A DNA stretch of 64,000 bases from a virus: IMG/VR virus record IMGVR_UViG_3300026488_000026, positions 1 to 64,000 of that record. One strand, 5' to 3'. The notes beneath the pieces were generated by a model. It saw only the letters and a list, made by a program, of their open reading frames with translations. It was not told the DNA's origin and searched no databases. The position numbers and the translations under genes are program-made. Of the stretch, positions 3,147 through 64,000 are shown in pieces (the stretch's first letter is position 1; each line of letters opens with the position of its first letter).

Positions 3147-3154
3147 TATATCGG
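3147..3154 (-). promoter_or_regulatory. Late promoter motif YYGATATA (CCGATATA)
   Basis: The minus strand reads CCGATATA 45 bases before the ATG at 3102. The CCGA part also forms one arm of a 6-bp hairpin (3151-3156 with 3164-3169) that spans the tape measure stop codon. One of twelve copies of this octamer in the window. Confidence 0.6.
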
Positions 3155-9106: not shown

Positions 9107-9114
9107 TATATCAG
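9107..9114 (-). promoter_or_regulatory. Late promoter motif YYGATATA (CTGATATA)
   Basis: CTGATATA on the minus strand, 36 bases before the tape measure ATG. TTTTAAAA lies about a dozen bases further upstream. Part of the twelve-copy set. Confidence 0.65.
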
Positions 9115-10917: not shown

Positions 10918-12243
10918 TTATTTGTGTGCTAAATAAAGTGCCTCGCCTAAAACAGGATGTTCATAAGCCTCAAATTCAAGTTTATTTGCAAGAACTCCAT
11001 CATCATCTTCTACACTAACACTTGTATATTTGATATAAGGCAACCAAATTGCAAATTTATGTTTTTGTGATTCATCGTCTGTTTCAGTTCTCATTTCAAG
11101 GAAAAATTCTGCTGTTTGATTGTTTTTAAATTTATTTAATTCATCCCAATTTTCAAAAGTAACAGTCATTGTTCCTTTAATTGTTTTTTTAGTAATAATT
11201 TTTTTCATAATACCTGAAGAAGTAATTGCCTCTCTATCAGATACTTGATTTTCAATTGTTATTTCTACATCTTTTCCTTCATAAGTTTTACCGTCAACTG
11301 TAAGAATTGCATTTTTTCCTACATAAGGAATAGTTGTTAAATATTTATTTGAAAGTAAAGGCTCATTTTCCGCTGTCTCAAAAGAACTTGCTCCTAAATC
11401 AATTGACAATGTTGCAATATCAGCAACAGGAAAACTAAATTTAACTGAATTAGGCACAGCACCTTTTAATGTCAAACTTCTACTATCAGTATCATCACAA
11501 CCATACATCAATTTAACAGCTAATGACTGTTCTTCTCCACAAGGTTTAGCTAATTTATAAAGAACAGCATCACCTACCTCACCAGCTTTAACTTCATAAA
11601 TTTTATACGCAACATGTGAAACTACATCAATTGTAAATTTATCTCCTACCGCAAAATTTGTTGAGCCACTTTCGATTTTAAATTTAATTATTCCATTATC
11701 ATAATCTTTGCCTGTAATTGCATCTTCTTTAGCACCACTTACACTACCTGTTACGCTCCAAACCTCTTCGCCTGCAGTATCAGCGTTAGTACATTCAATA
11801 GTCCATGTTTCAGTTTTAATAGTATCTTCGTTGTAACCAAAATTTGTTAAATTACCATCTCCTGTATTTCCACTATCAGCGGTAATAGTGCTTTCTACTT
11901 GAGGGGCGGCATCTGCTCTAATTATAGCACCTGTCCCTAATCCTGCTTCTTCTCTAATTCCAAGTGCTACTTCAAGAACTACATTACCAGCTAAATCATT
12001 ACTACCATTTCCAAGCGGTATCAATTCAAAAGCAAGAGTACCACTACCAAATTCTTTACCTGGTAATGCTGGAGCTGTAATGTAAGAATTTCTTACAACT
12101 TTTCTTTCAATAACATCAATTTCTGGTTTCAATGCACTATCAGAAGTTACTTCTACTACATCGTCGTCTGTAAAAGTTCCTCCTTTATTAAATTCTTTTT
12201 CTTTAATAACTGCATATAATGTAGATAGTGTCTTATAAGCCAT
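10918..12243 (-). CDS. Major tail tube protein with inserted VTGSVSGA domain
   Basis: A 441-aa protein, long for a tube protein. The N-terminal part (residues 1-110, with APALPGKEFGSGTLAFEL) and the part after about residue 215 form the probable tube fold. An insert at about 112-215 contains VWSVTGSVSGAKEDA, YDNGIIKF and FAVGDKFTIDV and is a paralogue of the module in the 629-aa protein at 1213-3102. Such inserts usually decorate the tube surface (inference). It lies between the tail terminator and chaperone genes, as expected, and has its own late promoter motif. Confidence 0.8.
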   Translation of the reverse strand: MAYKTLSTLYAVIKEKEFNKGGTFTDDDVVEVTSDSALKPEIDVIERKVVRNSYITAPALPGKEFGSGTLAFELIPLGNGSNDLAGNVVLEVALGIREEAGLGTGAIIRADAAPQVESTITADSGNTGDGNLTNFGYNEDTIKTETWTIECTNADTAGEEVWSVTGSVSGAKEDAITGKDYDNGIIKFKIESGSTNFAVGDKFTIDVVSHVAYKIYEVKAGEVGDAVLYKLAKPCGEEQSLAVKLMYGCDDTDSRSLTLKGAVPNSVKFSFPVADIATLSIDLGASSFETAENEPLLSNKYLTTIPYVGKNAILTVDGKTYEGKDVEITIENQVSDREAITSSGIMKKIITKKTIKGTMTVTFENWDELNKFKNNQTAEFFLEMRTETDDESQKHKFAIWLPYIKYTSVSVEDDDGVLANKLEFEAYEHPVLGEALYLAHK

Positions 12244-12277: not shown

Positions 12278-12285
12278 TATATCGG
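12278..12285 (-). promoter_or_regulatory. Late promoter motif YYGATATA (CCGATATA)
   Basis: CCGATATA on the minus strand, 35 bases before the tail tube ATG. A TAAA lies 15 bases before CGATA, close to the sigma-28 spacing. Fits a promoter for the abundant tube protein. Confidence 0.7.
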
Positions 12286-13856: not shown

Positions 13857-14132
13857 TTATTTATTTTCTCTTTTAGACTCTGTTTTTCTTTTCCTCGTTT
13901 TACTTTTGTTATATAATTCGTCTGTATCTTTTTCTTTATGAAGGGACTCCTTTTTAGAGTTTTTAGAAGTATCTTTAATTTTTTCTATTAAAACAAATTC
14001 TTTTGGAAAAGTATTTAAAAGATAATCTCCTAACTCTTTATCTACAACATATAATCCATCATATTTATAAGGACTAAATAAAATTCCTCTTACCATAATT
14101 CCATTACCGATAACTTTAATTTTATATTTCAT
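13857..14132 (-). CDS. Unknown 91-aa protein with basic tail
   Basis: Residues 1-50 are a small mixed domain (VIGNGIMVRGILFSPYKYDG); residues 51-91 are highly charged and Lys/Arg-rich, probably disordered. It follows the capsid gene and precedes the connector, a position often held by small head-completion or decoration proteins. It has its own late promoter motif and repeat copy B upstream. Family not recognised. Confidence 0.5.
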   Translation of the reverse strand: MKYKIKVIGNGIMVRGILFSPYKYDGLYVVDKELGDYLLNTFPKEFVLIEKIKDTSKNSKKESLHKEKDTDELYNKSKTRKRKTESKRENK

Positions 14133-14161: not shown

Positions 14162-14169
14162 TATATCAG
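14162..14169 (-). promoter_or_regulatory. Late promoter motif YYGATATA (CTGATATA)
   Basis: CTGATATA on the minus strand, 30 bases before ATG 14132. TAAA lies 13 bases before TGATA. Part of the twelve-copy set. Confidence 0.65.
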
Positions 14170-14324: not shown

Positions 14325-14350
14325 AAAAATCACTCATTAGGAGTGATTTT
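14325..14350 (-). terminator. Intrinsic terminator after the major capsid gene
   Basis: On the minus strand AAAATCACTC and GAGTGATTTT form a ten-base-pair stem with a five-base loop, then TTTTTC and five more T. It overlaps the capsid stop codon at 14349, so it ends the capsid transcript. Confidence 0.85.
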
Positions 14351-15557
14351 AATTAGAAGCTACATTAACGATTGCTGATACAGGAGTAGAATTTACACAA
14401 AGTTTTTTGAAGTCAATATCTCTATATCCAACATAGAGAGTTGTTGAACTTACTGCTTTTCTTTCTGTTTCAATTCCAATGTTTCCTCTATCGGCAACAC
14501 CAAAGTATGCTTTATTAACAAGAAGAACTGCTGTTTTATCTCCACTTGTTTCATCTACATCCCCATTTGCATCAAGATTATCAGGGATATATTCTGTTAC
14601 TATGATAGGCATACCAAATAGTTTTCCAATTTCACCTACCATAATAGTTGCTTTAGCACCATATTTATCAACAGTCAAAACTTCTGGCAATTCAAGCATT
14701 TGATATGCTACATTTACAGGTGCTACAATTGCAAGGTCGCCCAAATTAATTCCATAAACTCCAAGTAATCTTCTTGCTTGAGCGATTAATGATGCCGTTA
14801 CAGGGTTTCCTCCAGCATCAACTTTATTACCAGCATCTTTTGCATACTTCAAAAGTCCATCAAATGCTTTTTTAACATCATTAACATCACTAATAGAAGT
14901 ATCTCCCATCACAAGTGCTTCTTCTGTTGCTCTTGCAAGTGATTTTACAAGCTCTTGTCTAACAAGTTGTGTAATTGCTGTTACCATTTCTTGGTCTGCT
15001 TGGTCTGTTACAGCAAGTAATGTCTTAAATCTTGAAGTTGCAAAACTAATTTTTGCACCATTAATAGCACTTTCAATAGCATCCTCACCTGGAGCAATTA
15101 AATATGCTTTTGCTTTATCTGTTTTTGCTGGAATAGAAAATGTACTTCTATTTTCTGGCATTTTAAATCTTTGGAATAGCCCTTCAACTTTAAGGTCAAG
15201 TTCAAGTTCTTCCATTACTTTATTTGAAAATTCCTCAGCTAACCAACTTGCAATATCTGATGGTTTAATTGCTTTTTCAATAATAGGTGCGATTTCTTTA
15301 AATTCAGCAAAACTATCAACAGGTCTGCCAAGAAGTTTAGATTTAATGTGCAAATCAACTGCTTTTTCTTTTGCCTTTGCAACTTCTTTATCATTAATAG
15401 ATTTTTCTTCAAATTTTGTTTTTCTTTCAGTCCATTTATCTTCAAATTCTTTTTTAAGCTCTTCTACTTTTTTTTGTGCTTCAGTTTTAGTGCTGTCAAG
15501 CTCCTTTTTAAGTTCTTCTACTTGTTTTTGTAATGTAGAAATTACTTCAATTCCCAT
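14349..15557 (-). CDS. Major capsid protein (HK97 fold)
   Basis: A 402-aa protein. Residues 5-60 form a charged coiled coil, the scaffolding delta domain of HK97-type capsids normally removed by the prohead protease encoded nearby. The rest has HK97 features: SFAEFKEIAPIIEKA, FKTLLAVTDQADQEMV, LARATEEALVMGDT, and LFGMPIIVTEYIPD near the C-terminus. The ATG at 15557 is preferred over 15563 because the SD GAAAGGAA is then eight bases away. It is monocistronic: late promoter motif upstream and terminator downstream. Confidence 0.92.
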   Translation of the reverse strand: MGIEVISTLQKQVEELKKELDSTKTEAQKKVEELKKEFEDKWTERKTKFEEKSINDKEVAKAKEKAVDLHIKSKLLGRPVDSFAEFKEIAPIIEKAIKPSDIASWLAEEFSNKVMEELELDLKVEGLFQRFKMPENRSTFSIPAKTDKAKAYLIAPGEDAIESAINGAKISFATSRFKTLLAVTDQADQEMVTAITQLVRQELVKSLARATEEALVMGDTSISDVNDVKKAFDGLLKYAKDAGNKVDAGGNPVTASLIAQARRLLGVYGINLGDLAIVAPVNVAYQMLELPEVLTVDKYGAKATIMVGEIGKLFGMPIIVTEYIPDNLDANGDVDETSGDKTAVLLVNKAYFGVADRGNIGIETERKAVSSTTLYVGYRDIDFKKLCVNSTPVSAIVNVASN

Positions 15558-15589
15558 AACCATTTCCTTTCGATGTTATTTTACAAAAG

Positions 15590-15769
15590 TTATATCGGAA
15601 AGTTGTAATTTGTTTTATTATCAGCAAATTTTTTATTGTATTCTAAAATTTGTTTGTTTAAAAAATCGTTGATTTTTTTCAAGTCTTCGCGTTCTTTAAC
15701 ACAAATTTTATAACGATTTAAAAGTTCTTCAAATTCTTCTTTAGGAATTTCAATCATTTCCCTCTTCAT
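15590..15769 (-). CDS. Unknown 59-aa charged helical protein
   Basis: MKREMIEIPKEEFEELL continues as a charged helix ending KTNYNFPI. The SD AAGG lies six bases before ATG 15769; a second ATG at 15757 has GAGGG close by and overlaps the o-spanin stop, so either start is possible. It ends inside the capsid promoter motif. It may be part of the lysis or head operon; no family recognised. Confidence 0.6.
   Translation of the reverse strand: MKREMIEIPKEEFEELLNRYKICVKEREDLKKINDFLNKQILEYNKKFADNKTNYNFPI
15591..15598 (-). promoter_or_regulatory. Late promoter motif YYGATATA (CCGATATA), capsid gene
   Basis: CCGATATA on the minus strand, 34 bases before the capsid ATG, with TAAA 16 bases before CGATA. 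It overlaps the stop codon of the small upstream gene. The best candidate for testing, since it drives the most abundant virion protein. Confidence 0.72.
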
Positions 15770-16215: not shown

Positions 16216-16429
16216 TTTCTTCATCCTTACTTTTTGATTTTTCATAAGTCCTACCAGCAATCCATGCAACAGGAATACCAACAGCAATTGCAGTCCATAA
16301 ATCAATAAAAGCTTTATCTAAAGAAATAATTTTAAATCCACTTAATAAGGTTATTAAAGAAGTAAAAAAGAGAACATACCACGCCATTGAAGGTCGTGAT
16401 AAATTTTTAAACAAATCAATTTTGTTCAT
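16208..16429 (-). CDS. Holin candidate 1 (Holin_3TM-like)
   Basis: A 73-aa membrane protein from ATG 16429; a TTG seven codons upstream could also serve, and neither has a strong SD. LSRPSMAWYVLFFTSLITLL, a middle hydrophobic segment and WTAIAVGIPVAWIAG followed by charged residues match the short holins with an RPS motif before the first membrane span. It sits next to the spanins, as in lysis cassettes, and overlaps the end of the protease gene. It would time lysis by opening the inner membrane. Confidence 0.7.
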   Translation of the reverse strand: MNKIDLFKNLSRPSMAWYVLFFTSLITLLSGFKIISLDKAFIDLWTAIAVGIPVAWIAGRTYEKSKSKDEENV

Positions 16430-17891
16430 CTTTTTGTAGATATTCCGCAAGTTTTTCGTTTATAATTTTTTCAAGCTCACCATAAACATTTAAAAGATAA
16501 TCAAGTCCTTCAACATCATTTGCCTTTTTCTTTAAAAAGGCTAATAAATCAAATTGTTCTTCTTTATTATCATCATGTAGTTCTTTTTTATTTTCTATCT
16601 CTTGTTCTTTTTTTACACCATTATCATCTCTATCTTGGAAATAATTTTTCATAAATGCAAGTAATTTTGCAACTTCACTTCTACCTATAATAAAATCATA
16701 AACATTTCCATCATTTTTTACATATCTTCTAATTCTATAACCTAATGGCGGGTTTGGATAAGCTGTTAATACACTTTCACTTGTAACATTTACAATAAGC
16801 TCTCCTTCATCTCCGCCTTGAACTTGGTCTCCTACTTTTAAATTTTGACTTGATTCTATAATTTGATTTACTTTATCTTTTCCAAGATTTGTTGTTCCTC
16901 CTCTTTTTGCTTTTGTTTGCATATCTACTACCTCCTTAATTTCAGAATAAATTTTTTCAACTTGTGCTTCAAATTCCTTAACCATTTCTTCCAATTCTTG
17001 TGGTATTTCCTCAATTAAGTTTTGTCTTTTCATTTCTCTATAATGCTTTAATAAATGCCTACTTGCATCTCTTTTTTCTACAACACTAATATTAGGATCA
17101 TTTCTTGCTCCTCTTAGTGCTTGATAAGCACTTATAACACCATTTTTATTAACAACTAAATCTTCACCTTGTAATTCATGATGAGGAAATTTCCAAGTAC
17201 TCCTTTTTTCAATATCACCTACAACTAAATAACACTCTTTAATATAACTCTCTTTACCTAATTCTGCTAATTTTTGTCCTAAAGCTGTTTTATCAACTTC
17301 AGACCAAGCTTTAGTGCTAATTACATTGTTTTTTATTGCTTTTTCTTTACTCATTTCCATAAATCCTTTCTTAGTTAAATTTTGTCTTGTTGCCAACAAA
17401 CATATTCCTCTTTCACAAGGACTACTTTCTAAGACCGTAAATAAACTATCTTGGTTATCAGGAATAGATACAATACTTACTTCATAAAGCTCGATTTTAG
17501 TCCAATACCATACACCATCAATTTCTTTATAATCAAGACCTCTAAAACCTATCGAAAAAGCTTTTAAAATACCTTCTTTAATAGCTAAAAAAACTTTTGG
17601 ATTTAACGCTTTATAAACAATTGCTTCAATTTCAAGACCTTTTTGCGTTAAATTAATATTAATTACTTTTCCTACTACATCTAAAGGATTGTGTTGATAG
17701 AGTAATACAGGATTTTTCATAAAATTAGTTAAATCATAACTTTCTGGTAATACGCTTTCTTCACTTCTATCTACTATTAAATTGCCATTATCATCAAGAT
17801 AGCGATTTGCAAAACCTTTAATTAATATTTTTTCATCATCATTAACTTCAGTTGAAAATTCTTTTACAATTAAATTAAAAGTTTTATCCAT
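16416..17891 (-). CDS. Prohead protease with long C-terminal extension
   Basis: A 491-aa protein. Residues 1-160 match the HK97 prohead serine protease: His 67 in YQHNP, Ser 113 in AFSIGF, followed by KIELYEVSIVSIPDN. Residues about 215-300 (WKFPHHELQGEDLVVNKNG, then RHLLKHYREM) form a second domain seen in some phage head proteins. Residues 320-491 include a charged low-complexity region and a C-terminal helix, a possible scaffold. It cleaves capsid delta domains during maturation. Late promoter motif upstream. Confidence 0.82.
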   Translation of the reverse strand: MDKTFNLIVKEFSTEVNDDEKILIKGFANRYLDDNGNLIVDRSEESVLPESYDLTNFMKNPVLLYQHNPLDVVGKVININLTQKGLEIEAIVYKALNPKVFLAIKEGILKAFSIGFRGLDYKEIDGVWYWTKIELYEVSIVSIPDNQDSLFTVLESSPCERGICLLATRQNLTKKGFMEMSKEKAIKNNVISTKAWSEVDKTALGQKLAELGKESYIKECYLVVGDIEKRSTWKFPHHELQGEDLVVNKNGVISAYQALRGARNDPNISVVEKRDASRHLLKHYREMKRQNLIEEIPQELEEMVKEFEAQVEKIYSEIKEVVDMQTKAKRGGTTNLGKDKVNQIIESSQNLKVGDQVQGGDEGELIVNVTSESVLTAYPNPPLGYRIRRYVKNDGNVYDFIIGRSEVAKLLAFMKNYFQDRDDNGVKKEQEIENKKELHDDNKEEQFDLLAFLKKKANDVEGLDYLLNVYGELEKIINEKLAEYLQKDEQN

Positions 17892-17919: not shown

Positions 17920-17927
17920 TATATCGG
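17920..17927 (-). promoter_or_regulatory. Late promoter motif YYGATATA (GCCGATATAAT context)
   Basis: CCGATATA on the minus strand, 29 bases before the protease ATG. The context GCCGATATAAT has the full GCCGATA of sigma-28 promoters but also a TATAAT, so sigma-70 recognition cannot be excluded here. Confidence 0.65.
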
Positions 17928-19283
17928 CTAAACTTTTAAATCAGGATCGCCTCCTAAAGGGTCTGTACTTCCTACACTACTTGGTTTATTATTTTGGCTT
18001 TCAGAATTATCAGTATTATTTTCTGAATTATTTTTACTCATAGCAACTAAATCTTGGAAGAATTGAGCTTCGCTACCTGTTAAGAAAGCAGGGACAATAT
18101 TTTTATCTGCACCATCAAAATCCATTTCTGGTAAATCAACTAAATTTCTTGCTTCATTTAATGTGGCAAGTCCTGTTGCAAACAATGTTCTCGCACTATC
18201 AGCTTTTACATCAAGAGCCGTATCAAGTTCTGTAATTCTTCCAAAATCAAATTCAAAATGATACTTACCATAACCAAATTGTTTTCCTAAAAACAAATTA
18301 ATTTGGTCTTGTATTCTATATAAATAAGGTCTTACAGCGGTATTAAATACAACTTTCATTAATTCTTGTGGTTTTCCAGCACTACTTGACTCACCTCCTA
18401 AAACAAGTGCATTTAATTTAAAAACTCTTAAAACTCTTTTTTCACTTATATTTATACTATCTAAAAGCATTGCATCTTTAGGGCTTGCTTGAACTGTCTT
18501 ATAATCCATTTTGGCTGGTAAAACAGCTATACCTCTTCTTTCACTACCACCTTTTCCATATAAAGCATTAAATTGTTCTCTTAATTCTTCTATTTGTTGA
18601 GGAGTTAGAGCGTATTCTGCTTTTAAAATACCAGCTAAAATTACACTTCCTTCATAAAATTCTTTTAAACTTTCAATGGCATCTTTTTCTAATGTTAAAG
18701 TATCAAGTAAAGGGGCTACACTTGGTAGCCCATAATAAGCATTATTTAAAGTTGGATTTACAATCCAAATAAGTTCATTTTCTTTATAAGCAATTTTATC
18801 ATTATAAATATAACCTTTAATAAATTTAGTCGCATCGGGCACTACTTTAACATTGTGAGGTTGAGTTAAAAACCAAGTTTCATAACTTCCTTTTACATTT
18901 TCAAAAGTTAAAGGAGCTACACCAGAGAGTAATAAACCTTGAATTGCAAGTTCAATTATTGTCCCCCAAGACCAAAACGGATTTGGTCTGTATTCCCATT
19001 CTCTTAATTTTTTGTCCTTAACAGGTAGTTTTTTACCAGATTTATCTAACTGATATAATCTTGGGACGGCTTGTCCTCCAGCTTTTGCTATATAATCAAC
19101 AGCACTAAAAACAAGCTCACTTGTATGAAAAGAATTTTCCATAGCACTTGTAGCTAAAATACCATTTCCATCTTTATAATCTTCAAAAATTTTTTTATTT
19201 GCTTTTGTAGCTTTGGTATTCATATATATTAATGTTTCTTTTTTTGTCTGAGGTTGTTTTTTAAAAAGATCAAAAAAACCCAT
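17928..19283 (-). CDS. Portal protein (HK97 family)
   Basis: A 451-aa protein. Hallmarks: FHTSELVFSAVDYIAKA near the N-terminus, LREWEYRPNPFWSWGTIIEL, IVNPTLNNAYYGLPSVAPLL, a coiled region, and the LDVKADSARTLFATGLATLN segment with LPEMDFDGAD near the C-terminus. It forms the dodecameric DNA gate at the capsid vertex. It sits next to the protease and capsid genes as in HK97. SD AAAAGGAA before ATG 19283. Confidence 0.9.
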   Translation of the reverse strand: MGFFDLFKKQPQTKKETLIYMNTKATKANKKIFEDYKDGNGILATSAMENSFHTSELVFSAVDYIAKAGGQAVPRLYQLDKSGKKLPVKDKKLREWEYRPNPFWSWGTIIELAIQGLLLSGVAPLTFENVKGSYETWFLTQPHNVKVVPDATKFIKGYIYNDKIAYKENELIWIVNPTLNNAYYGLPSVAPLLDTLTLEKDAIESLKEFYEGSVILAGILKAEYALTPQQIEELREQFNALYGKGGSERRGIAVLPAKMDYKTVQASPKDAMLLDSINISEKRVLRVFKLNALVLGGESSSAGKPQELMKVVFNTAVRPYLYRIQDQINLFLGKQFGYGKYHFEFDFGRITELDTALDVKADSARTLFATGLATLNEARNLVDLPEMDFDGADKNIVPAFLTGSEAQFFQDLVAMSKNNSENNTDNSESQNNKPSSVGSTDPLGGDPDLKV

Positions 19284-19315: not shown

Positions 19316-19323
19316 TATATCAG
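19316..19323 (-). promoter_or_regulatory. Late promoter motif YYGATATA (CTGATATA)
   Basis: CTGATATA on the minus strand, 33 bases before the portal ATG. Part of the twelve-copy set. Confidence 0.65.
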
Positions 19324-19501: not shown

Positions 19502-19509
19502 TATATCGG
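19502..19509 (-). promoter_or_regulatory. Late promoter motif YYGATATA with no gene downstream
   Basis: CCGATATA on the minus strand, four bases after the stop of the 349-aa fibre gene. The only sequence it can drive before the portal promoter at 19316 is the hairpin array and the long inverted repeat. It is the one member of the set not followed by a start codon. Confidence 0.55.
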
Positions 19510-22452: not shown

Positions 22453-23268
22453 TTAACTGATAGTGCTATCTAACGGACTACCTTGTTGATAAGTAGTTCG
22501 TAATGCTTTATATTCAATTGTAACACCATAATCATTTGTTATATTTATATTATCTAAATAAGTAAAATCCACGGCAAAACCCGATTCATTGTCACGCCAA
22601 TCATTAATATTTCCCCATTCAGCTGGATAAAAAACAAAATAATATCTCAATTCACCATGATTATCAAAATTATATTTTCCTGAATACCCACTTTTTAAAG
22701 CACTATTCTCAAGTGCTTTAATTTCTTCCGCAGTTAAAGTTTCTTTTACCGAAGTTCCCCAATAAACTCTTGCTCTCCAATAAACACGAAAATCTCTACT
22801 AAATGTTTGTTCTTTTGTATTAACACCACTAATTCTCCAAGTATAATAACTATTAATTTCGCTTGAAGTTTTATCCTCCCCTATATCTAAATTTTCCTGA
22901 CCATCATTTGCTAAATTACTACCTAAAATTGTATTAGCGTTTATATCTTTAATGCTAATAGAGTTTTCTTTTATATTTTCTGAATGACTTGTACTCCATT
23001 TAAAAGTTCTAATCCCACCGCTTATTGCTTGTCCTACTTCTAATTGCGTTGATTGTCCTTCAATATAAAAACTTGTAAAAGAAGGATATTGATAAGGAAA
23101 CAAAATCATTTTTAAAACTTCACAAGGTTGCATTCCATTAATATCTGTACCAGCTTCTAATCCACCATGTTTTTCTGGTACAACTTCTTCAGTTTGCATA
23201 ACACAACCACCAGACCCTCCACCAACTCCTATATCAGGGTAAATCACAGAAAATTTATTATTTGGCAT
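22453..23268 (-). CDS. Virion protein with Ig-like/beta fold
   Basis: A 271-aa protein. The start, with VGGGSGG, then LEAGTDINGMQPCEVLKMIL and FPYQYPSFTSFYIEG, followed by LEVGQAISGGIRTFKWSTS, matches a family of virion proteins found near fibre genes in several phages, which continue in an Ig-like fold. Likely part of the fibre or a capsid appendage. Own late promoter motif upstream; followed by the 622-aa gene after 11 bases. Exact role unknown. Confidence 0.55.
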   Translation of the reverse strand: MPNNKFSVIYPDIGVGGGSGGCVMQTEEVVPEKHGGLEAGTDINGMQPCEVLKMILFPYQYPSFTSFYIEGQSTQLEVGQAISGGIRTFKWSTSHSENIKENSISIKDINANTILGSNLANDGQENLDIGEDKTSSEINSYYTWRISGVNTKEQTFSRDFRVYWRARVYWGTSVKETLTAEEIKALENSALKSGYSGKYNFDNHGELRYYFVFYPAEWGNINDWRDNESGFAVDFTYLDNINITNDYGVTIEYKALRTTYQQGSPLDSTIS

Positions 23269-23297: not shown

Positions 23298-23305
23298 TAT
23301 ATCAG
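23298..23305 (-). promoter_or_regulatory. Late promoter motif YYGATATA (CTGATATA)
   Basis: CTGATATA on the minus strand, 30 bases before ATG 23268; TTTTTAAAAG lies about 11 bases upstream of it. Likely start of the fibre operon 23268-19513. Confidence 0.65.
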
Positions 23306-23333: not shown

Positions 23334-24692
23334 TTATACAACTTGAATTTGTAAATTTTGTAATTTCCACCAACCACTTGTTAAATAACGCAAAGCACCA
23401 ACAGCTAAGTCAAAATGCCCATCTTTGTTTCTTTCTATTGTTTTTCCATTTGAATTTTCTTTCCAATGAGCCAACTTTAATTCTTCTATTAATTGCATAC
23501 AATTTTCAGATATAAATAATTTTCCTTTTTGAAATGCTGTGTTAATGTCCCTAATGCTTTCTACTAATTGAATTGGTGCGGGTTGTGTATAGTAGTTATA
23601 GCTATATGCCATATCAGCCATTGTCAAACTTGCACTTGGGTCACAAAACCTTACAACTTGCATATCAGGATTTTCCGCATATCTTTGTTCTATTTCTCTG
23701 AATTGTTTAACATGCCATTCAATAGGCATTTGCCCAGCTTTATATTCGTCCAAAACATAAATATTGCCCGTCATAGGCTCTACCCAAGCTATAACAAAAC
23801 TTGTATTATCTCTATAACCTATATCAATTCCTACTACAAATGTATCTTTTGTTGTCATTTTGTTTTTCAAATCATTAATTCTAAATACATTTTTTTCTAA
23901 ATCAAAAGCATAAAATACTTGTAAATCCTCGCTAAACCCACTTTGAAACTCACATAAATATTCTTGTTCAAAACTTCTTTTATCAAGTTTAGCTTTAATT
24001 GCCTCAATCATTTCTCTTGTTATCATAGGATTATCATAAATAGTTACCTTTTTACAAAAATAATCATCGCGTTCAGCACATCTTTTCCATAATTTATAAA
24101 AATCATTATCAAAAGTTCTTGGCGTTCCTATAAAAAAAGTTTTAGAATACATAAAACCATTTTCATCAGTTCCATAATCATTTTGTGCTGGAGAAATATA
24201 AGTTTCCCAAATTTCAAGAACATTATTAATACTCGCGGTTTCATCAAAAATAACCAAACTAAATTTATCTCCAAGTGCATTTTCATAATTTTTTTCAGTA
24301 ACGACACGAAACTTTGCACCATTTTCTAATGTAAATGTTAAACCTTTCATATCTTTTGATTTAAAAGGCAATTGTAATTTGTTTACATCTTTTTCAACAT
24401 TACTAAAAATAGCTTGTGCATTTGCAAAAGTAGGCGTTACTAATAATATACTTGAATTTGGAACTAAAAGTTCAGCGGAGGCAATTTTTGACATAACTGT
24501 TGATTTACCAGCTCTTCTTGACATTAAAAAAACACCAACATTAAAATCCCCTTTTTGTATTCTATCAATTATTTCTTGTTGATATTTTGTAGGAGTAAAT
24601 TCAAAAAGTTTCATTACCTTATTATAATCTATCTTCTTTTTAACTTTTTTATAAAGCTCTATTTCTTGATTTATAGGTTTAAATTCAGACAT
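23334..24692 (-). CDS. terL: Terminase large subunit
   Basis: A 452-aa ATPase-nuclease that packages DNA into the prohead. Residues 58-65 SRRAGKST are the Walker A-like motif, 146-151 LVIFDE the Walker B. The nuclease domain begins at GIDIGYRD (Asp 290), with CDPSASL and DGHFDLAVGALRYL later. The length is normal. The small subunit lies 1.2 kb upstream with a plus-strand gene insert between. Late promoter motif and repeat copy C precede it; SD AAAAGGA. Confidence 0.93.
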   Translation of the reverse strand: MSEFKPINQEIELYKKVKKKIDYNKVMKLFEFTPTKYQQEIIDRIQKGDFNVGVFLMSRRAGKSTVMSKIASAELLVPNSSILLVTPTFANAQAIFSNVEKDVNKLQLPFKSKDMKGLTFTLENGAKFRVVTEKNYENALGDKFSLVIFDETASINNVLEIWETYISPAQNDYGTDENGFMYSKTFFIGTPRTFDNDFYKLWKRCAERDDYFCKKVTIYDNPMITREMIEAIKAKLDKRSFEQEYLCEFQSGFSEDLQVFYAFDLEKNVFRINDLKNKMTTKDTFVVGIDIGYRDNTSFVIAWVEPMTGNIYVLDEYKAGQMPIEWHVKQFREIEQRYAENPDMQVVRFCDPSASLTMADMAYSYNYYTQPAPIQLVESIRDINTAFQKGKLFISENCMQLIEELKLAHWKENSNGKTIERNKDGHFDLAVGALRYLTSGWWKLQNLQIQVV

Positions 24693-24726: not shown

Positions 24727-24734
24727 TATATCAG
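24727..24734 (-). promoter_or_regulatory. Late promoter motif YYGATATA (CTGATATA)
   Basis: CTGATATA on the minus strand, 35 bases before the large terminase ATG. It gives the gene its own start, needed because it is cut off from the small terminase gene by plus-strand genes. Confidence 0.65.
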
Positions 24735-26732: not shown

Positions 26733-27047
26733 TTATATTTTTGATTTTATTTTTTTTACAATTTCTACTTCAATTAGATATAATAAATTTGCTCCTTTAT
26801 GTGCCATAATACCTCCAAAAGCACTTGCTCCATAAATACTTACATTAAGCATATCATAAGCAAGAACAAATCCTATTAAACCTAAAAATCCTGCATAAAA
26901 CAAATCTAATAAATATAGCATTATTTTAGTTTTAATAGGTTTGTTTTTCAAATCTCTTTGTGTGAAATTTATTGAAGTAGCCCAAAGTATAAAAATCATT
27001 AAAATTATATAAGCTTTTAAAGTTACTTCGTCCCATTTATTTTTCAT
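26733..27047 (-). CDS. Holin candidate 2 (membrane protein)
   Basis: A 104-aa protein with three hydrophobic segments: AYIILMIFILWATSI, LLDLFYAGFLGLIGFVLAYD and the Gly/Ala-rich YGASAFGGIMAHKGANLLYL. The last part and the layout resemble lambda-type holins, but the match is weak. It has its own late promoter motif. With the gene at 16208 there are two holin-like proteins; one may be an antiholin. Confidence 0.45.
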   Translation of the reverse strand: MKNKWDEVTLKAYIILMIFILWATSINFTQRDLKNKPIKTKIMLYLLDLFYAGFLGLIGFVLAYDMLNVSIYGASAFGGIMAHKGANLLYLIEVEIVKKIKSKI

Positions 27048-27074: not shown

Positions 27075-27082
27075 TATATCGA
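27075..27082 (-). promoter_or_regulatory. Late promoter motif YYGATATA (TCGATATA)
   Basis: TCGATATA on the minus strand, 28 bases before ATG 27047; the most divergent of the set at its first base. TAAA lies 11 bases before CGATA. Likely start for the holin candidate and terminase small subunit genes. Confidence 0.6.
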
Positions 27083-27155: not shown

Positions 27156-27881
27156 ATGAAAAAAATTGCTCTTTTATCAGGAGGTAAAGATAGTGTTACA
27201 ATGGTTGATTTGTTATTAAAAAATAATTATAAAGTAGATTATATTATTTATAATGACACAAAAATGGAATTTAAAGAAATGTATGAATATATGGAAAGAG
27301 TTAAAAAATATTTTAAAGAAAAATACAATAAGGAAATTATTACTTTAACTACTGAAAAAGATTATGTTAAAGATTTGTTTCTTAAAAAAAGAAAAAGGGG
27401 AGAATATAAAGGTTATTATTATGGTGTTTTATCTAAAAATCTACCTTTTTGTTGGTGGCGTGATTATGTAAAAAAAGCTCCAATGAATAAATGGTTAAAA
27501 CAAAATAATATAAAAAATTACTATATGTATATTGGTTTTTCAAATAATGAAAAAAGAAGAGCTAAAAGGTTTAAAAGAAACAATCCTAACGCTATTTTTC
27601 CACTTATTGAATATTTTGATATGAGTGAAAATGATTGTTTAGAATATACTAAACAAATAAATTTATATAATCCTTTATATGATTATTTTCAAAGAACAGG
27701 ATGTAGATTGTGTCCTTATCGTAAAAAAGAAGATATTTATAAAATTTACAAATATTTTCCTAATGTTTGGGAGGAATATAAAAAAATGGAAGAATTATTT
27801 GAAAATAAAGGGAAAGTTATTAGTAGGTATTTTTTCGATAAACCAATAAAAGAATTAGAAAGAGAATTTAAAATAATTTAG
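27156..27881 (+). CDS. PP-loop ATPase, PAPS reductase-like
   Basis: A 241-aa protein of the adenine nucleotide alpha-hydrolase superfamily. SGGKDS at residues 8-13 is the PP-loop; a C-terminal TGCRLCPYR holds a Cys pair found in phage and DndC-type relatives. Members act in sulfate reduction, tRNA or DNA sulfur modification; the substrate here cannot be told. It is the only plus-strand gene in this stretch, has its own promoter and SD AAAGG, and overlaps the convergent DUF1353 gene by 14 bases at the 3' end. Confidence 0.75.
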   Translation: MKKIALLSGGKDSVTMVDLLLKNNYKVDYIIYNDTKMEFKEMYEYMERVKKYFKEKYNKEIITLTTEKDYVKDLFLKKRKRGEYKGYYYGVLSKNLPFCWWRDYVKKAPMNKWLKQNNIKNYYMYIGFSNNEKRRAKRFKRNNPNAIFPLIEYFDMSENDCLEYTKQINLYNPLYDYFQRTGCRLCPYRKKEDIYKIYKYFPNVWEEYKKMEELFENKGKVISRYFFDKPIKELEREFKII

Positions 27882-29722: not shown

Positions 29723-31285
29723 TTAATTAATTTGATATCCCCAAAGTTCATCTTTAAAAACATTACCTTTTCCATCGGTCCAATAAACAACAAAACTTGA
29801 ATTATCGTTTTCTTTTATCCCACCTAAAACAAAAGCTGGTTTATCTAATGTTTCTAATAATTTAACAGCATTAGTATCGTTTGCTACAAAATTAATAAAT
29901 AGCATATTTCTTCTTGTATCATTGCTATTTCCATCATTATTAATTAATTTTAGCCCATTAGGTAAATTATAAAATTTAAGGCTATCTTCTTTACAATCAA
30001 TTTCTATTCTTGTTGCATTGTCTATGTTTGTATATTTAGAACTTGTAGCCCTAATATGTAGATGTTTTTTATTATCTGAATCATTAAACCAATCAATTCT
30101 GGCTTGTGCTGGATAAGCACTGCCTAAACCAAAATTATAACCTACCCAGCTACCAGAGCTTGTTGTATTCTTGTAAGCTTGGTATGTTCCTTTATCTCCA
30201 GCTACAATATCATAAGCATTAATATTTGAACTTGTAACATCAACTGCTAAACCTAATGTTCCCGTAGTCCAATTATATTTTAAACTTTTTCCTAAAGTTG
30301 AACTTGCGTTGTAATTATCATTTTGACTTACAACAACATCATAATTTACATAATCATTAGTTTTAACAACTAACGCTTTCCATTCATTTGAATTACCTTT
30401 CCTTCTAACAATAATTTCTTCAGCTAAATTATCATAAATTAATTGTCCTCCTTTTGGGTATTCATTAATATCATTTTTCCAATCTTCTATTCTTTGATGA
30501 ACAACATCTTGAGAGTTTGATGGTAAATAAATCCAACCATCATTCCAAAAAACAAAACCTGAATATTTAATTTCTTTATTTGCTACTAATGAAGTTTTAC
30601 CTTTAAACCAACCAAAATGCCCAGCTGAGTTATAAATAACAAGATTTTTATTTTTAAAATCAATCCAATAATATCCATCTTCTGGCGTTCCTTGTCCTGT
30701 TGGCGGGTAGCCTGTAACATAATTAATACGATTTTCAATAGAACGATTAAAATCCCAACCAAAATCCCCACGAGCTTTTATAGCATTATTACGACCACAA
30801 TATAAATTATAATCTTTTGTATCTCCATAAATAGGAATACCAGCTCCTATAACGCCATATTGATTAACAGCAAATTGAACTTGTGATGTATAAGCTTGTA
30901 TAACTTTTTCGCTATGTGTAAAAATTCTTAAAGGCGTAACATTTTTACTATCAACAGTTGTATCAATATTTAATGCTGAGTTTGTTCCTTGTGGGTTGTG
31001 TTGTAAATATGGACTTGTTATTGCTTTATCTCCATCAGTTTTATATAAAAATTTATTTTTTTCTCCTTCAATTGTAGTTCCATATTTTATTTTTAAAAGT
31101 TGTCCGTTTGAAATTGCGTCATTAACTGTAACTCCAACAACTTCATTTGGATCAACTACTAAAACATAATGTTCAAATACATCAGAACTAATAGCAACTT
31201 TTAAAATATCTCCTCTTTTAAATTTATCAAGTTTTGAAAATTTAGTATCTACTATTGCTATTTCTGTATGAGTTGGGATTGCCAT
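29723..31285 (-). CDS. Tail fibre protein (520 aa)
   Basis: The N-terminal 80 residues (GDILKVAISSDVFEHYVLVV, then VNDAISNGQLLKIKYG) form the shared attachment-like module. The rest is Asn, Gly and Tyr-rich with short beta repeats (EDGYYWIDFKNKNLVIY, GGQLIYDNLAEEIIVRRKG) as in fibre shafts. It is the first gene of the four-gene fibre operon 31285-27868 and has the late promoter motif at 31317. SD AAGGAG before ATG 31285. Confidence 0.65.
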   Translation of the reverse strand: MAIPTHTEIAIVDTKFSKLDKFKRGDILKVAISSDVFEHYVLVVDPNEVVGVTVNDAISNGQLLKIKYGTTIEGEKNKFLYKTDGDKAITSPYLQHNPQGTNSALNIDTTVDSKNVTPLRIFTHSEKVIQAYTSQVQFAVNQYGVIGAGIPIYGDTKDYNLYCGRNNAIKARGDFGWDFNRSIENRINYVTGYPPTGQGTPEDGYYWIDFKNKNLVIYNSAGHFGWFKGKTSLVANKEIKYSGFVFWNDGWIYLPSNSQDVVHQRIEDWKNDINEYPKGGQLIYDNLAEEIIVRRKGNSNEWKALVVKTNDYVNYDVVVSQNDNYNASSTLGKSLKYNWTTGTLGLAVDVTSSNINAYDIVAGDKGTYQAYKNTTSSGSWVGYNFGLGSAYPAQARIDWFNDSDNKKHLHIRATSSKYTNIDNATRIEIDCKEDSLKFYNLPNGLKLINNDGNSNDTRRNMLFINFVANDTNAVKLLETLDKPAFVLGGIKENDNSSFVVYWTDGKGNVFKDELWGYQIN

Positions 31286-31316: not shown

Positions 31317-31324
31317 TATATCAG
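31317..31324 (-). promoter_or_regulatory. Late promoter motif YYGATATA (CTGATATA)
   Basis: CTGATATA on the minus strand, 32 bases before the fibre ATG; TTTAAAC about 12 bases upstream. Divergent from the early plus-strand operon. Confidence 0.65.
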
Positions 31325-56390: not shown

Positions 56391-57214
56391 TATAACTCCT
56401 TAATTATATTTTCATATAAATTAGTTTGATAAATTTTAATACTATTTAACATTGCTAAAGCTATTTTTCTTATTTCTTCTTGTGCATCTTTTTTTAATCT
56501 TAAATTAAAAAAGTTTACTAAACTATCTTTATCCATCTGTACCCAAAATATTGTATAAGCACCAACAGGTTGAATTGCCCTTGCTTGTTCTGGTTTTAAA
56601 CCTGTTTCTAAAGCCTTTTCATATACTGAAGTTATATAATTATAAGTATCTTCAAACATTCTTTCAATATTTTGTCTATCGCCATAATCTAATGAATTAT
56701 AATTTTCCATTTCAGGCATATAAAATTCAAAAGGCACTTTATTATTTTTTACATACCTACGACTCATTTCTAAGTAACTTGCTCCTCTATGACGCATAAA
56801 TTGTCTTGCTACAAAAATAGGGCATTTTATTTTAAATGTGGCAACTTCACTTGCATGGTCAAGCATTAATTGAGTTAAAATATCCTTATCCCCATCAGCT
56901 ATTTGTTCAAAAGTTGGCAAATTTTCATGCCTTAAACTTTCTCTTATCCTATCACTAAAATAAGCTGGTGTAATAAACTCAAACACACTTTCATGCTTTA
57001 AAACTTGTAATCTTTTATACAACTTAGCTGGGTCTTTTGCTTGTTCATTACCATAACTCAAACTTGCAATTGTGGCAACCATTTCTTCTCTACTTTCTTG
57101 ATTAAGATTACCAGCCCAACCGCTCCACAATTCTACAAAACCATTTTCCCATTTTGTATTAATATTATAAATAGGTTTTACCAAAGAGATTCTTTTAAAA
57201 TATTTATTTTCCAT
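56390..57214 (-). CDS. thyX: Flavin-dependent thymidylate synthase ThyX
   Basis: A 274-aa protein. RHRGASYLEMSRR at 141-153 is the ThyX signature RHRxxSxxxxSxR. HESVFEFITPAYFSDRIRES and EQARAIQPVGAYTIFWVQMD add further conserved parts. Converts dUMP to dTMP with FAD, methylenetetrahydrofolate and NADPH. Suits an AT-rich genome with a high thymidine need. Confidence 0.95.
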   Translation of the reverse strand: MENKYFKRISLVKPIYNINTKWENGFVELWSGWAGNLNQESREEMVATIASLSYGNEQAKDPAKLYKRLQVLKHESVFEFITPAYFSDRIRESLRHENLPTFEQIADGDKDILTQLMLDHASEVATFKIKCPIFVARQFMRHRGASYLEMSRRYVKNNKVPFEFYMPEMENYNSLDYGDRQNIERMFEDTYNYITSVYEKALETGLKPEQARAIQPVGAYTIFWVQMDKDSLVNFFNLRLKKDAQEEIRKIALAMLNSIKIYQTNLYENIIKEL

Positions 57215-57452
57215 TTGCTTTTCCTTTCAAGAATTTTAATAATTCTTTTTCAAGTTTTTCTTTTGTTGGTTTTTTTCTTATTTTTTTAACCATTTTACTA
57301 CTTGTATGGTATCTTAAAATAGTTTCTTTAGGGATTTTAAATTCTTTAACTAAACCTTCAGGTATTATTAAATCATAATAGTAGATTTTTTTCTCTTCTG
57401 GTACATACAAAATTGTTCCTTTAAAGTTTTTATAAGTAATTTCAACTATCAT
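57204..57452 (-). CDS. Unknown 82-aa basic protein
   Basis: MIVEITYKNFKGTILYVPEE, then a Lys-rich C-terminal half (SKMVKKIRKKPTKEKLEKEL). Overlaps thyX by 11 bases. May bind nucleic acid because of its charge; no family. Confidence 0.45.
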   Translation of the reverse strand: MIVEITYKNFKGTILYVPEEKKIYYYDLIIPEGLVKEFKIPKETILRYHTSSKMVKKIRKKPTKEKLEKELLKFLKGKANGK

Positions 57453-57696
57453 TTTTTTCTCCTTTCAAATTTTTATAAATTTTAACAAATTGTTCTTTTG
57501 CACTTAAAAAATCAGAATGCTTACTAATAACTACTCTTTTATTATCTTTAAATCTTGTTATAAAATATATTGTACCATATTGCCCTATTTCAAAATCTTG
57601 CATAATTTTATCTTTTAATGCTTTGTTATACATAATATTTATATACTTTTCGTTCTTTTTATTTTTCTTTATTAATTTTTTAATAAAAGTAAACAT
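57442..57696 (-). CDS. Unknown 84-aa basic protein
   Basis: MFTFIKKLIKKNKKNEKYIN, then a beta part (YGTIYFITRFKDNKRVVISK). Overlaps the next gene by 11 bases. SD AAGGAGG. Not recognised. Confidence 0.45.
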   Translation of the reverse strand: MFTFIKKLIKKNKKNEKYINIMYNKALKDKIMQDFEIGQYGTIYFITRFKDNKRVVISKHSDFLSAKEQFVKIYKNLKGEKNDS

Positions 57697-61210: not shown

Positions 61211-62554
61211 TTAATTAAATTTTAATGGTAGTCTAAATTGATATCCTTTTGGTAATAAACTATCATCTCTTACAAATTTTACATTTTTACCTCCTATACC
61301 ATAGAGTCTATATTTTTCAACTTCTGTTTCAAAATAATGATTTTTTACAAAGTCAAAGTGTTCTACAAATTCATTATCAATATTACTTATTGCAACTTCA
61401 TAAAAATTCTTATAACACATAGGGCATAATTGTTTTTTAAATTTAGAAAAATAATTACCACAACAAACACATTTTCTAAACATTCCTACTTGCAAATCCA
61501 CTATTTGTCTATAAATTTCTTCTTTATTAAAATAATAAATATTTTCTTGAACATATAAATTTTCCAAACCAAATGTTACAATTTCATCAGTTATTTTATA
61601 CTTAATTTTTTTACCATTTTCTAATATAAAACCAATAGGTAACAAATTTTCATCAAACCAATAATCTAAAACTTTAATAAAACTTTTTCTTGTTTTTAAT
61701 TTTAAAATTTTAATGCCTTGTTTATCTATTATTAAATGTTTTTTAATTAAATTTTTACCTAAACTTTTTAAATCATAGAAAGTATTAATTTCTTTTATAT
61801 TAGGATATTTAATTTTTATGTTATTGTATTTTTTAAAACGAAAATTTTTAATTTTTTTGCCTTCGTTAATCATAAATAAAGGAACTAAAATGTCTTTTTC
61901 ATAAATAAAATAAAAGGACATGTTATTTTTAAACTTAAAAATTTCTTTTAAAAAACTAATTATTTTTTTACTTTTTAAATCAGAATCAATTAAATTTCCT
62001 TTTTTAACAAAACTAAAAATTTTATATTCACTTACACCTTTAGGTAAAATATAAAAATCTAAAGGATAATTTAATTTATCGCCAACGCCTCTAAGCAATT
62101 TAATTTTATAATCTTTTAAATCCAAATTTTCAATTTTTAATAAAGCATATAACTCTTCTTTTGTATATAACTTTTTTAAAACACTTAAAATAAAATCTTC
62201 ACCTACATTTAAAAATTTACCACTTAAAAACAATTTAATTATCCAAACTATCTTTTTATTAATACTTTTAGTATATTCTTTTAAAGCCGTTAAATCTCCT
62301 TGCTCTATATAAAAAAGAATTAAACCTAATGCTGAAATTAAATCTCCACCTTCTATCAAATCACCTTCTCTTATAAAACTTAAAAAATTTTTATTTTTTG
62401 GAGTTAAAGAATAATATGCCGAAATTAATAATTCAAATTCTTTTCTAAACTTATTATAAGCAACTAAAAAAGCATTTTGTCTATTATAGTAGCCTTTTTC
62501 AAAATAAAAATCATTTACTAAATTAAAAAGAATTGTAATATTTTTTGATTTCAT
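61211..62554 (-). CDS. Unknown 447-aa protein with zinc finger, beside sigma gene
   Basis: MKSKNITILFNLVNDFYFEK; the N-terminal 200 residues are helical, the middle is basic and beta-rich (YPNIKEINTFYDLKSLGKNL), and the C-terminus has FRKCVCCGNYFSKFKKQLCP with MCYKN, a four-Cys zinc finger near residue 390. It overlaps the sigma factor gene by 32 bases; the ATG at 62554 has AAAGGA five bases before. May be a partner of the sigma factor or a DNA-binding protein; no family known. Confidence 0.5.
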   Translation of the reverse strand: MKSKNITILFNLVNDFYFEKGYYNRQNAFLVAYNKFRKEFELLISAYYSLTPKNKNFLSFIREGDLIEGGDLISALGLILFYIEQGDLTALKEYTKSINKKIVWIIKLFLSGKFLNVGEDFILSVLKKLYTKEELYALLKIENLDLKDYKIKLLRGVGDKLNYPLDFYILPKGVSEYKIFSFVKKGNLIDSDLKSKKIISFLKEIFKFKNNMSFYFIYEKDILVPLFMINEGKKIKNFRFKKYNNIKIKYPNIKEINTFYDLKSLGKNLIKKHLIIDKQGIKILKLKTRKSFIKVLDYWFDENLLPIGFILENGKKIKYKITDEIVTFGLENLYVQENIYYFNKEEIYRQIVDLQVGMFRKCVCCGNYFSKFKKQLCPMCYKNFYEVAISNIDNEFVEHFDFVKNHYFETEVEKYRLYGIGGKNVKFVRDDSLLPKGYQFRLPLKFN

Positions 62555-63125
62555 CACTATCTATCCTTTCTACTTTACCATATTGAATAAAATCTCTAAT
62601 AAAAATAATACTTTTTACTATAATAAATTTAAGACTACTCAAAGATATGTTATTTACTTTAGCCGTTTTTATTAAACCATAACCTTTTATAAAATAATCA
62701 TGCAAAAGTTTTAATTCAAAATCAGTAAAATAATTTTTTAATAATTCTCTTATATTTTCTTGTAATAAATATCTCTCAACATCTTCCATATAATTTTCAT
62801 TTATATGAAATTCCTCATAATTTTCAGGGGGAGCAGTAAGCCAACTTTCTTTATCTTTTAAACTTTTTTTAATTGCACCATATTTATTTAAACTATTTTT
62901 AGCAACCCAATCTAACATTCTTCCATAAATTTTTTTATAAGCAAATCCCATAAAATAATCGTTTTTATCACTATCATATTTTTCTTTTGCTAAAAGATAA
63001 CCTAAAACCCCTTCTTGAATTAAATCCTCTAAATCAATTCCTGCAAAACTTCTCTCGTATATTTTATAAGCTAAACCTTCAATGTGTTTATAATCTTTTT
63101 CTGGTATATTATACTTATTTGACAT
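62523..63125 (-). CDS. RNA polymerase sigma factor, sigma-28 (FliA/WhiG)-like
   Basis: A 200-aa protein. Residues 29-75 (GIDLEDLIQEGVLGYLLAKE, then FMGFAYKKIYGRMLDWVAK) match sigma-70 region 2, with the RGxMLD signature of the FliA/WhiG group. Residues 125-185 (FTDFELKLLHDYFIKGYGLI, then NNISLSSLKFIIVKS) fit region 4, though degenerate. Region 1 is absent. It would direct host RNA polymerase to late phage promoters; the repeated YYGATATA octamers upstream of virion genes match sigma-28 -10 elements. Overlaps the next and previous genes. Confidence 0.72.
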   Translation of the reverse strand: MSNKYNIPEKDYKHIEGLAYKIYERSFAGIDLEDLIQEGVLGYLLAKEKYDSDKNDYFMGFAYKKIYGRMLDWVAKNSLNKYGAIKKSLKDKESWLTAPPENYEEFHINENYMEDVERYLLQENIRELLKNYFTDFELKLLHDYFIKGYGLIKTAKVNNISLSSLKFIIVKSIIFIRDFIQYGKVERIDSDEIKKYYNSF

Positions 63126-64000
63126 TTATAAGCTCCTTAACTTCTAAACTTGAAATCCCATTTTCTTTTATAACAGTAAACAAATAATCAGCAAAAATTT
63201 CTTCAATTTCATTGTGATGTGTAATAATAAATATAGCTTTATCTTTTTTCAAATAATTTAAAACATTTTTCATAAACTCAATCCCCTCATCATCTAAAAC
63301 ACCAAGTAATTCATCTATAACAAGAAAATTAATATTTATACCAATTAATTCTTCTAAAGTTTTAATTGTGGCTAAAAGCAATAACAAACTAACTCTTGTC
63401 TTTTCGCCTGAACTTAATTGATAAAAAGTTTTTTTAACACCTCTATCTATAAATTTATAATCCAAACTTCCTTTATTTATTTTAATTTCAAAATCGAAAT
63501 CAAAAGCACTTTTATCTTTAAAAAATTCAATATTAAGTTTTAATAAACGCACATAATCTTTTAAAAATTCGTTCATTATGATACCTTTTTTAAACAAACT
63601 TAAAATTTCTTTATATACATCAATTTTCTTACTTAAATAAAGGCGTTTTTCTTTTAATTCTTTTAATTTCTCTCTTAATTTATCAATATTATCTTCAAGT
63701 TGTTTTTTAAGTTCTTTTTGTTTTATATATTCATCTCTTTTTACTTTTAATTTTTCAATTTGTAATAAAATATCTTTTTTCTTTTGTTCAAAACTATTTT
63801 TAATTTCTTCATACTTTTCTTTTAAAATATCTACTTTATTTTTCTCTTTTTTATAATACTTTTTAAATTCCTTAAATTCTTCATCCGCCTTTTTAAATTG
63901 TTCCTCATAAATTTTATATTTATCAACCACTTGACTACCACAAACAGGACAAATACCTTCTTTTAAATCTTCTTTCAATTTATATAAATTTTCAGCTTTA
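63115..64000 (-). CDS. SbcC/gp46-like recombination ATPase, N-terminus outside window
   Basis: The frame is open to the right edge, so the start is missing; 295 C-terminal residues are visible. ICPVCGSQVVDKYKI is the zinc hook, flanked by coiled coil; LSSGEKTRVSLLLLLA is the ABC signature; INFLVIDELLGVLDDEGIEF is Walker B with D-loop; FIITHHNEI is the H-loop. With an SbcD/gp47 nuclease, probably further upstream, it processes DNA ends in recombination-dependent replication. The four-codon overlap with the sigma gene shows co-transcription. Confidence 0.85.
   Translation of the reverse strand, partial: KAENLYKLKEDLKEGICPVCGSQVVDKYKIYEEQFKKADEEFKEFKKYYKKEKNKVDILKEKYEEIKNSFEQKKKDILLQIEKLKVKRDEYIKQKELKKQLEDNIDKLREKLKELKEKRLYLSKKIDVYKEILSLFKKGIIMNEFLKDYVRLLKLNIEFFKDKSAFDFDFEIKINKGSLDYKFIDRGVKKTFYQLSSGEKTRVSLLLLLATIKTLEELIGININFLVIDELLGVLDDEGIEFMKNVLNYLKKDKAIFIITHHNEIEEIFADYLFTVIKENGISSLEVKELINVK

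What the first reader, a model, noticed from the sequence alone, without database searches (positions are those of the whole stretch)
62523..63125. Phage-encoded sigma-28-like factor as the candidate reader of those promoters
The protein has a clear sigma region 2 with the FliA/WhiG signature (RGxMLD) and a degenerate region 4. Sigma-28 factors recognise GCCGATA-type -10 elements, and the octamer set in this genome matches. Phage sigma factors exist (T4 gp55), but a flagellar-type sigma with a matching visible regulon in one genome looks unusual. It may also mean the phage borrows the promoter specificity of host flagellar genes.
Basis: partly seen in the sequence, partly recalled or inferred. 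Interest (0 to 1): 0.85.

Follow-up and report, generated by a model that had tools for sequence, protein, structure and literature searches.

The report
Phage late sigma with its promoters
This bacterial virus carries its own small sigma factor, probably made early from a host-type promoter, that most likely steers the host's RNA polymerase to about a dozen short DNA signals in front of its structural and lysis genes; related viruses keep the gene but have shifted the signal, which makes a natural set for learning how sigma factors read DNA.

Summary
The ORF is real but on the MINUS strand (62523-63125, 200 aa). It is a sigma-70-superfamily protein: region 2 is over Pfam's cut-off and closest to FliA; a degenerate region 4 is present; sigma domain 3 is missing. 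The promoter set is also real: C[CT]GATATA (TCGATATA at the holin gene) lies 34-52 nt upstream of 11 late genes and no early gene; about 0.2 such sites are expected per genome. There is no -35 element, whereas early promoters show TTGACA/TATAAT. So the architecture is like T4 late or phiEco32 promoters, not sigma-28's TAAA-N15-GCCGATAA. All seven near-complete CGA-motif relatives keep the gene beside SbcC (in one, beside an insert), and their late -10 shifts by lineage (CYGATATA, ACGATWAT, GCGAnA). In the three nearest genomes region 2 is 92-97% identical, region 4 only 47-80%. It is best read as a phage-encoded late sigma that works from a -10 element alone. It is not a true FliA-family member: sigma3 is absent, scores fall far below FliA cut-offs, and a weak tree disfavours it. 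New observation: the gene next downstream ends in a beta-clamp-binding-like motif (Q..LP[LFI]) in six genomes, hinting at replication-coupled late transcription.

The parts
62523..63125 (-). Phage late sigma factor candidate, 200 aa
   Evidence: Pfam Sigma70_r2 31.9 bits over cut-off; TIGR02937 sigma70-ECF superfamily 46.5 over cut-off 42.9; seven orthologues
62892..63086 (-). Sigma region 2 (residues 14-78), -10 reading and melting domain
   Evidence: residues 29-93 are 92-97% identical in the three nearest genomes
62580..62759 (-). Degenerate region 4-like domain (residues 123-182)
   Evidence: aligns to FliA region 4 in a profile search; helices in the AF2 model; 47-80% identity among the three nearest genomes
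61211..62557 (-). Conserved downstream partner gene, overlapping sigma (447 aa from the ATG at 62554), function unknown
   Evidence: same place in G000-2 and G009-11 at 23-25% identity between the groups; no Pfam or PHROG match
61223..61240 (-). C-terminal QFRLPL, beta-clamp-binding-like hexapeptide of the partner (residues 439-444)
   Evidence: Q439, L442 and P443 invariant in six orthologues; the only six such C-termini among 1,123 proteins
61415..61471 (-). CxxC...CxxC (C362, C365, C377, C380) zinc-finger-like site of the partner
   Evidence: invariant cysteines in alignment A6
63115..63978 (-). SbcC-like gene (continues to 64803 in the record), directly upstream of sigma
   Evidence: phrog_77 E 1.7e-27; SbcC-sigma order kept in relatives
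15591..15598 (-). Late promoter CCGATATA of the major capsid gene 14349-15563
3147..3154 (-). Late promoter CCGATATA before 1213-3102
9107..9114 (-). Late promoter CTGATATA before the tape measure gene 3159-9071
12278..12285 (-). Late promoter CCGATATA before the tail gene 10918-12243
14162..14169 (-). Late promoter CTGATATA before 13857-14132
17920..17927 (-). Late promoter CCGATATA before the head maturation gene 16416-17891
19316..19323 (-). Late promoter CTGATATA before the portal gene 17928-19283
19502..19509 (-). Conserved extra CCGATATA 226 nt upstream of portal (207-229 nt in relatives)
23298..23305 (-). Late promoter CTGATATA before 22453-23268
24727..24734 (-). Late promoter CTGATATA before the terminase large subunit 23334-24692
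27075..27082 (-). Late promoter variant TCGATATA before the holin gene 26733-27047
31317..31324 (-). Late promoter CTGATATA before 29723-31285

Best explanation
The gene encodes a phage late sigma factor. Host sigma-70 RNA polymerase probably transcribes it early from TTGACA-17-TATAAT at record position 67001, through genes 66091-63115. The protein then joins host core RNA polymerase through its region 2 and directs it to an 8-bp extended -10 element, C[CT]GATATA at about -14 to -7 with purine +1, in front of the capsid, portal, terminase, tail, holin and other late genes. No -35 contact is needed, so its region 4-like domain has been free to drift. Shown: gene, domains, motif, positions, absence of a -35 element, conserved gene position, lineage-specific motif. 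Inferred: binding to core, reading of this motif, timing.
For: Only Sigma70_r2 match in the record. Best PDB profile hits are FliA, E 1.6e-12. Model close to sigma28-RNAP 9wsm_F: Z 10.0, rmsd 12.1, 153 residues aligned, tied with other sigmas. Motif 10, 11 and 11 sites at 33-52 nt against 0.2 expected in three genomes. It precedes late genes only, 11 of 33 against 0 of 66, including capsid, portal, TerL, tape measure and holin. No informative upstream column, while the early control shows TTGAC in 22 of 64. Purine at +1 in 32 of 32. All seven near-complete relatives with a CGA motif carry the orthologue, beside SbcC in all but G002, where an insert lies between. Motif differs by clade with a constant CGA/YGA core. 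Region 2 92-97% identical against region 4 47-80%. Pfam region 4 is recognisable in G009 and G011, whose class shows a weak C at -19; the window's class shows neither. A multisubunit RNA polymerase of the phage's own was not found.
Against: No expression data; binding and specificity are untested. G012 has SbcCD but no detectable sigma and no clear motif, only a 140-aa ORF in the place of sigma. Fragments such as G004 and G013-G016 have the motif but no sigma gene on the contig. Start sites are inferred from sequence. The partner or the host could supply part of the specificity.
Confidence: 0.82

Rival explanations
1. Host sigma-28 (FliA) reads the late promoters; the phage sigma serves other genes or is accessory.
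For: The CGAT-type -10 equals the C. jejuni sigma-28 motif CGATwt, 6-8 nt from the start site (PMC3847290) and the GATA part of E. coli GCCGATAA (PMC2859248).
Against: No -35 TAAA in the window class. The motif shifts between related phages, and G008 uses GCGAnA/CGAAACA. No other promoter class is left over for the phage sigma. Depending on a flagellar sigma would tie virion production to motility (inference).
Confidence: 0.08
2. The sigma drives a middle class, and late genes are read through another phage regulator.
For: The downstream partner is conserved and could be a regulator; G010 has a CGATTAT site before its partner gene.
Against: Only one non-sigma-70 motif class was found, and it sits on late genes. 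A multisubunit phage RNA polymerase was not found; the single-subunit search had no positive control.
Confidence: 0.07
3. The octamer is not a promoter but another late signal, such as an RNA-processing or repressor site.
For: No start site has been mapped.
Against: Spacing to a conserved purine fits -10 to +1; the partition from the early genes is clean; it is found before many late gene starts in many relatives.
Confidence: 0.03

Closest known systems
phiEco32 gp36 late sigma (PMC8948821)
   Same: Phage-encoded sigma, host core, single-element late promoters without -35, start 6-8 bp downstream, host sigma-70 early promoters
   Different: Motif tAATGTAtA instead of CYGATATA; gp36 gave no match to the profile of this family; gp36 lacks region 4 homology, while a degenerate region 4 remains here
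T4 gp55 with gp33 (PMC2988020, PMC7892883)
   Same: Small divergent sigma, 8-bp late promoter, recognition confined to the -10 site, SbcCD genes in the neighbourhood
   Different: TATAAATA motif (own knowledge); gp55 is barely detected by the profile (5.3 bits), ends in a clamp motif and has no sigma4; here any clamp motif is on the downstream gene
FliA / sigma-28 (PDB 9wsf, 9wsm, 6pmi)
   Same: Closest region 2 by profile; GxxxD of FliA G77-D81 kept; CGAT/GATA-type -10
   Different: No sigma3, no TAAA -35 in the window class, far below family cut-offs, clade disfavoured
Bacillus phage G gp69 sigma
   Same: Best named phage sigma, 38% identity over residues 10-82
   Different: Different genome context, beside a clamp-loader gene; promoters not examined here
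Salmonella phage 7-11 gp47 sigma (PMC8948821)
   Same: Phage late sigma on host core; related phages differ in promoter motif
   Different: Bipartite GTAAtg-16-aCTA with region 4 homology

Membership tests
Sigma-70 superfamily | Region 2 match over the curated cut-off | tested here: met
   PF04542 31.9 against 24 bits; TIGR02937 46.5 against 42.9
FliA/WhiG (sigma-28) family | Score over family cut-off (NF005413 201, TIGR02479 189.6) | tested here: not met
   48.9 and 45.2 bits
FliA/WhiG (sigma-28) family | sigma2-sigma3-sigma4 architecture | tested here: not met
   FliA matches cover regions 2 and 4; only about 30 residues lie between them
FliA/WhiG (sigma-28) family | Promoter TAAA -35 plus GCCGATAA -10 | tested here: not met
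   -10 partly alike; no -35 in the window class
FliA/WhiG (sigma-28) family | Groups with FliA in a tree | tested here: inconclusive
   p-AU 0.023 against, but 84 columns, few references, long branches
T4 gp55 late sigma family | PHROG 234 (late sigma transcription factor) match | tested here: not met
   not listed for the window protein at E up to 1; E 0.029 for the G008 orthologue only
T4 gp55 late sigma family | Short late promoter without -35 | tested here: met
T4 gp55 late sigma family | C-terminal sliding-clamp-binding motif on the sigma | tested here: not met
   Sigma ends KKYYNSF; the motif-like end is on the downstream gene
Phage late sigma factors of the phiEco32 gp36 type (as a way of working) | Drives host core RNA polymerase from phage late promoters in vitro | not testable with these tools
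   needs purified protein and in vitro transcription

The most novel reading that the evidence does not exclude
The sigma and the gene overlapping its end form a two-part, replication-coupled late transcription system invented independently of T4. The sigma reads a -10-only promoter, and the partner tethers the enzyme to the host's beta sliding clamp through its C-terminal Q..LP[LFI] peptide, so late genes are transcribed from replicating DNA.
Probability: 0.18. Interest if true: 0.85.

Novelty: new variant of a known kind. Interest (0 to 1): 0.62.

Why it matters
It offers a natural series: one sigma orthologue in a family of related uncultivated phages, each with a readable late regulon whose -10 has drifted (CYGATATA, ACGATWAT, GCGAnA). 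That makes it directly testable which region 2 residues set -10 specificity, and how a sigma lives without a -35 element while region 4 decays. If the partner's clamp motif is real, T4's famous link between replication and late transcription would have a second, independent example that uses the host clamp.

Tried and rejected
Phylogeny on region 2 was poorly resolved: no starred branches, long T4 and SPO1 branches. FliA membership was rejected on architecture and cut-offs. A T5-type arrangement was checked: capsid and TerL are distantly T5-like, but phiR2-01 has RusA after SbcC, not a sigma. G012 looked like a no-sigma control, but the 140-aa ORF after SbcC could be a diverged sigma by eye (profile comparison negative), so it was dropped as a control. 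Host assignment failed: only two short metagenome-assembled contigs from unrelated groups. The partner's fold prediction was poor (pLDDT 54); Foldseek gave only weak DNA-ligase-like rows (E 0.009 or worse), so no fold is claimed. Absence of a phage T7-like RNA polymerase could not be shown, since the control did not ring. The Koo 2009 paper on FliA residues is not held, so any D81 contact is from my own knowledge.

Full report
What is there. The ORF at 62523-63125 is on the minus strand, 200 aa. The window lies in a 78,936-bp virus record with a 127-bp end repeat, so it is probably complete; GC is 25%. Pfam finds Sigma70_r2 at residues 14-78, 31.9 bits over a cut-off of 24, and no second such gene in the record. 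NCBIfam ranks FliA first (48.9 bits) but far under its cut-off of 201; the broad sigma-70 superfamily model is passed.

Relatives. Viral contigs G001 (sigma 86% identical) and G002 (69%) are close sister phages. Capsid and terminase searches led to further relatives. Among those of 69 kb or more, G008, G009, G010 and G011 carry the sigma orthologue. In all seven genomes it stands beside SbcC, in G002 with a DNA methyltransferase-like gene between them. G013 ends just after SbcD, so its sigma would lie off the contig; G012 has SbcCD but no detectable sigma.

Promoters. In the window genome C[CT]GATATA occurs 15 times on both strands; 10 sites lie in sense 33-52 nt before a gene start, 0.19 expected. 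The two sister genomes give 11 each. With TCGATATA at the holin gene, 11 of 33 late-block genes and 0 of 66 other genes have it (the blocks were drawn by hand from gene order and annotation). The genes include tape measure, tail, capsid, head protease, portal, terminase and holin. Aligning 32 sites shows a fixed octamer, a frequent T at +10 (26 of 32) and a purine at +14 of the motif in all 32, the place of +1 if the octamer spans -14 to -7. Upstream there is nothing: the best column is 0.28 bits against a shuffle limit of 0.31. The same method on TATAAT sites of the same genomes finds TTGAC (22 of 64), so a -35 element would have been seen.

Lineage shifts. Late promoters of relatives keep a CGA core and change around it: ACGAT[AT]AT in G004, G009, G010, G011 and G018; CGATATA in G013, G014, G015, G020 and G021; ACGATTTT in G016; GCGATAG, CGAAACA and GCGACAC in G008. 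The CGATATA class shows a C at -19 in 24 of 35 sites and the ACGATWAT class a weaker one, 18 of 42. Pfam region 4 is found in G009 and G011 but not in the window protein. In the window's clade region 2 is 92-97% identical while region 4 is 47-80%. These facts fit a sigma that reads only the -10 in this clade. The number of lineages is small, so this is a consistent pattern rather than proof.

Structure and kinship. A seven-sequence profile finds FliA first among solved structures (1.6e-12). The AF2 model (pLDDT 73) has region 2 helices and a C-terminal helical domain; VIA-align puts 9wsm_F, sigma28-RNAP, first (Z 10.0, rmsd 12.1, 153 aligned), tied with many sigmas. The residues at FliA G77 and D81 are invariant in all seven phage proteins (FliA sequence). 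A tree on 84 columns does not place the phage proteins with FliA (p-AU 0.023), but it has no firm branches. The protein is therefore filed as a sigma-70-superfamily phage late sigma with FliA-like region 2, not as FliA.

Timing. A perfect TTGACA-17-TATAAT lies at record position 67001, minus strand, just upstream of the genes that run into SbcD, SbcC and sigma. This is as expected if host sigma-70 makes the sigma first.

The partner. The gene 61211-62557 overlaps the end of sigma and is kept there in six genomes at 23-25% identity between groups. Its last residues carry Q..LP[LFI]; of 1,123 called proteins in the 16 records only these six have it in the last 16 residues. QLSLPL is a tight beta-clamp-binding peptide from Hda (PMC12309361). 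The pattern was chosen after seeing it, which weakens the count but not the conservation. Neither a bacterial-type clamp (control rang) nor a T4-type clamp (weak control) was found in these phages. T4 joins gp55 and gp33 to its clamp by C-terminal motifs (PMC2988020). A like role here is a hypothesis; a repair or ligase-like role for the partner is as possible.

Verdict. Observation largely right with the strand not stated and here shown to be minus; reader role well supported by comparison; flagellar label and host borrowing not supported.

Noticed in passing
window 61211-62557 (-): Protein downstream of sigma has invariant CxxC/CxxC cysteines and a C-terminal beta-clamp-binding-like motif, unique in these genomes; fold prediction poor with only weak ligase-like matches.
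   Followed up: partly
L006:8136-10925 (record 68136-70925): The ribonucleotide reductase large subunit appears to carry a small intein-like insert (NLCVSYETKLL... to ...VLTGNCSE), judged by eye.
   Followed up: no
window 19502-19509 (-): A second CCGATATA lies 226 nt upstream of portal and is kept in two sister genomes (207-229 nt), suggesting a tandem late promoter or a long leader.
   Followed up: no
G002 (L021-L024), sites at 45162, 43307, 37268, 35524, 23303: Several late promoters of G002 share a nearly identical stretch of about 30 nt upstream of CTGATATA (TTAAATTAAATTTTACTTTTATTTTATA), as if copied as a promoter cassette.
   Followed up: no
L109:17136-17558 (G012 57136-57558, -): A 140-aa ORF directly after SbcC in G012 resembles a very diverged sigma region 2 by eye (LEECMQGINDGLNTYDKTKG); profile comparison found no support.
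   Followed up: partly
L026-L029 (G008): G008 early promoters look like the -35-less TTTAAG...TGTTATAAT type of Campylobacterota (own knowledge), while G000-2 use TTGACA, so hosts probably differ across the family.
   Followed up: partly
window 27156-27881 (+): A phosphoadenosine phosphosulfate reductase-like gene sits head to head with the holin gene in the late block; it has no hit in either sister genome in a protein BLAST comparison.
   Followed up: no
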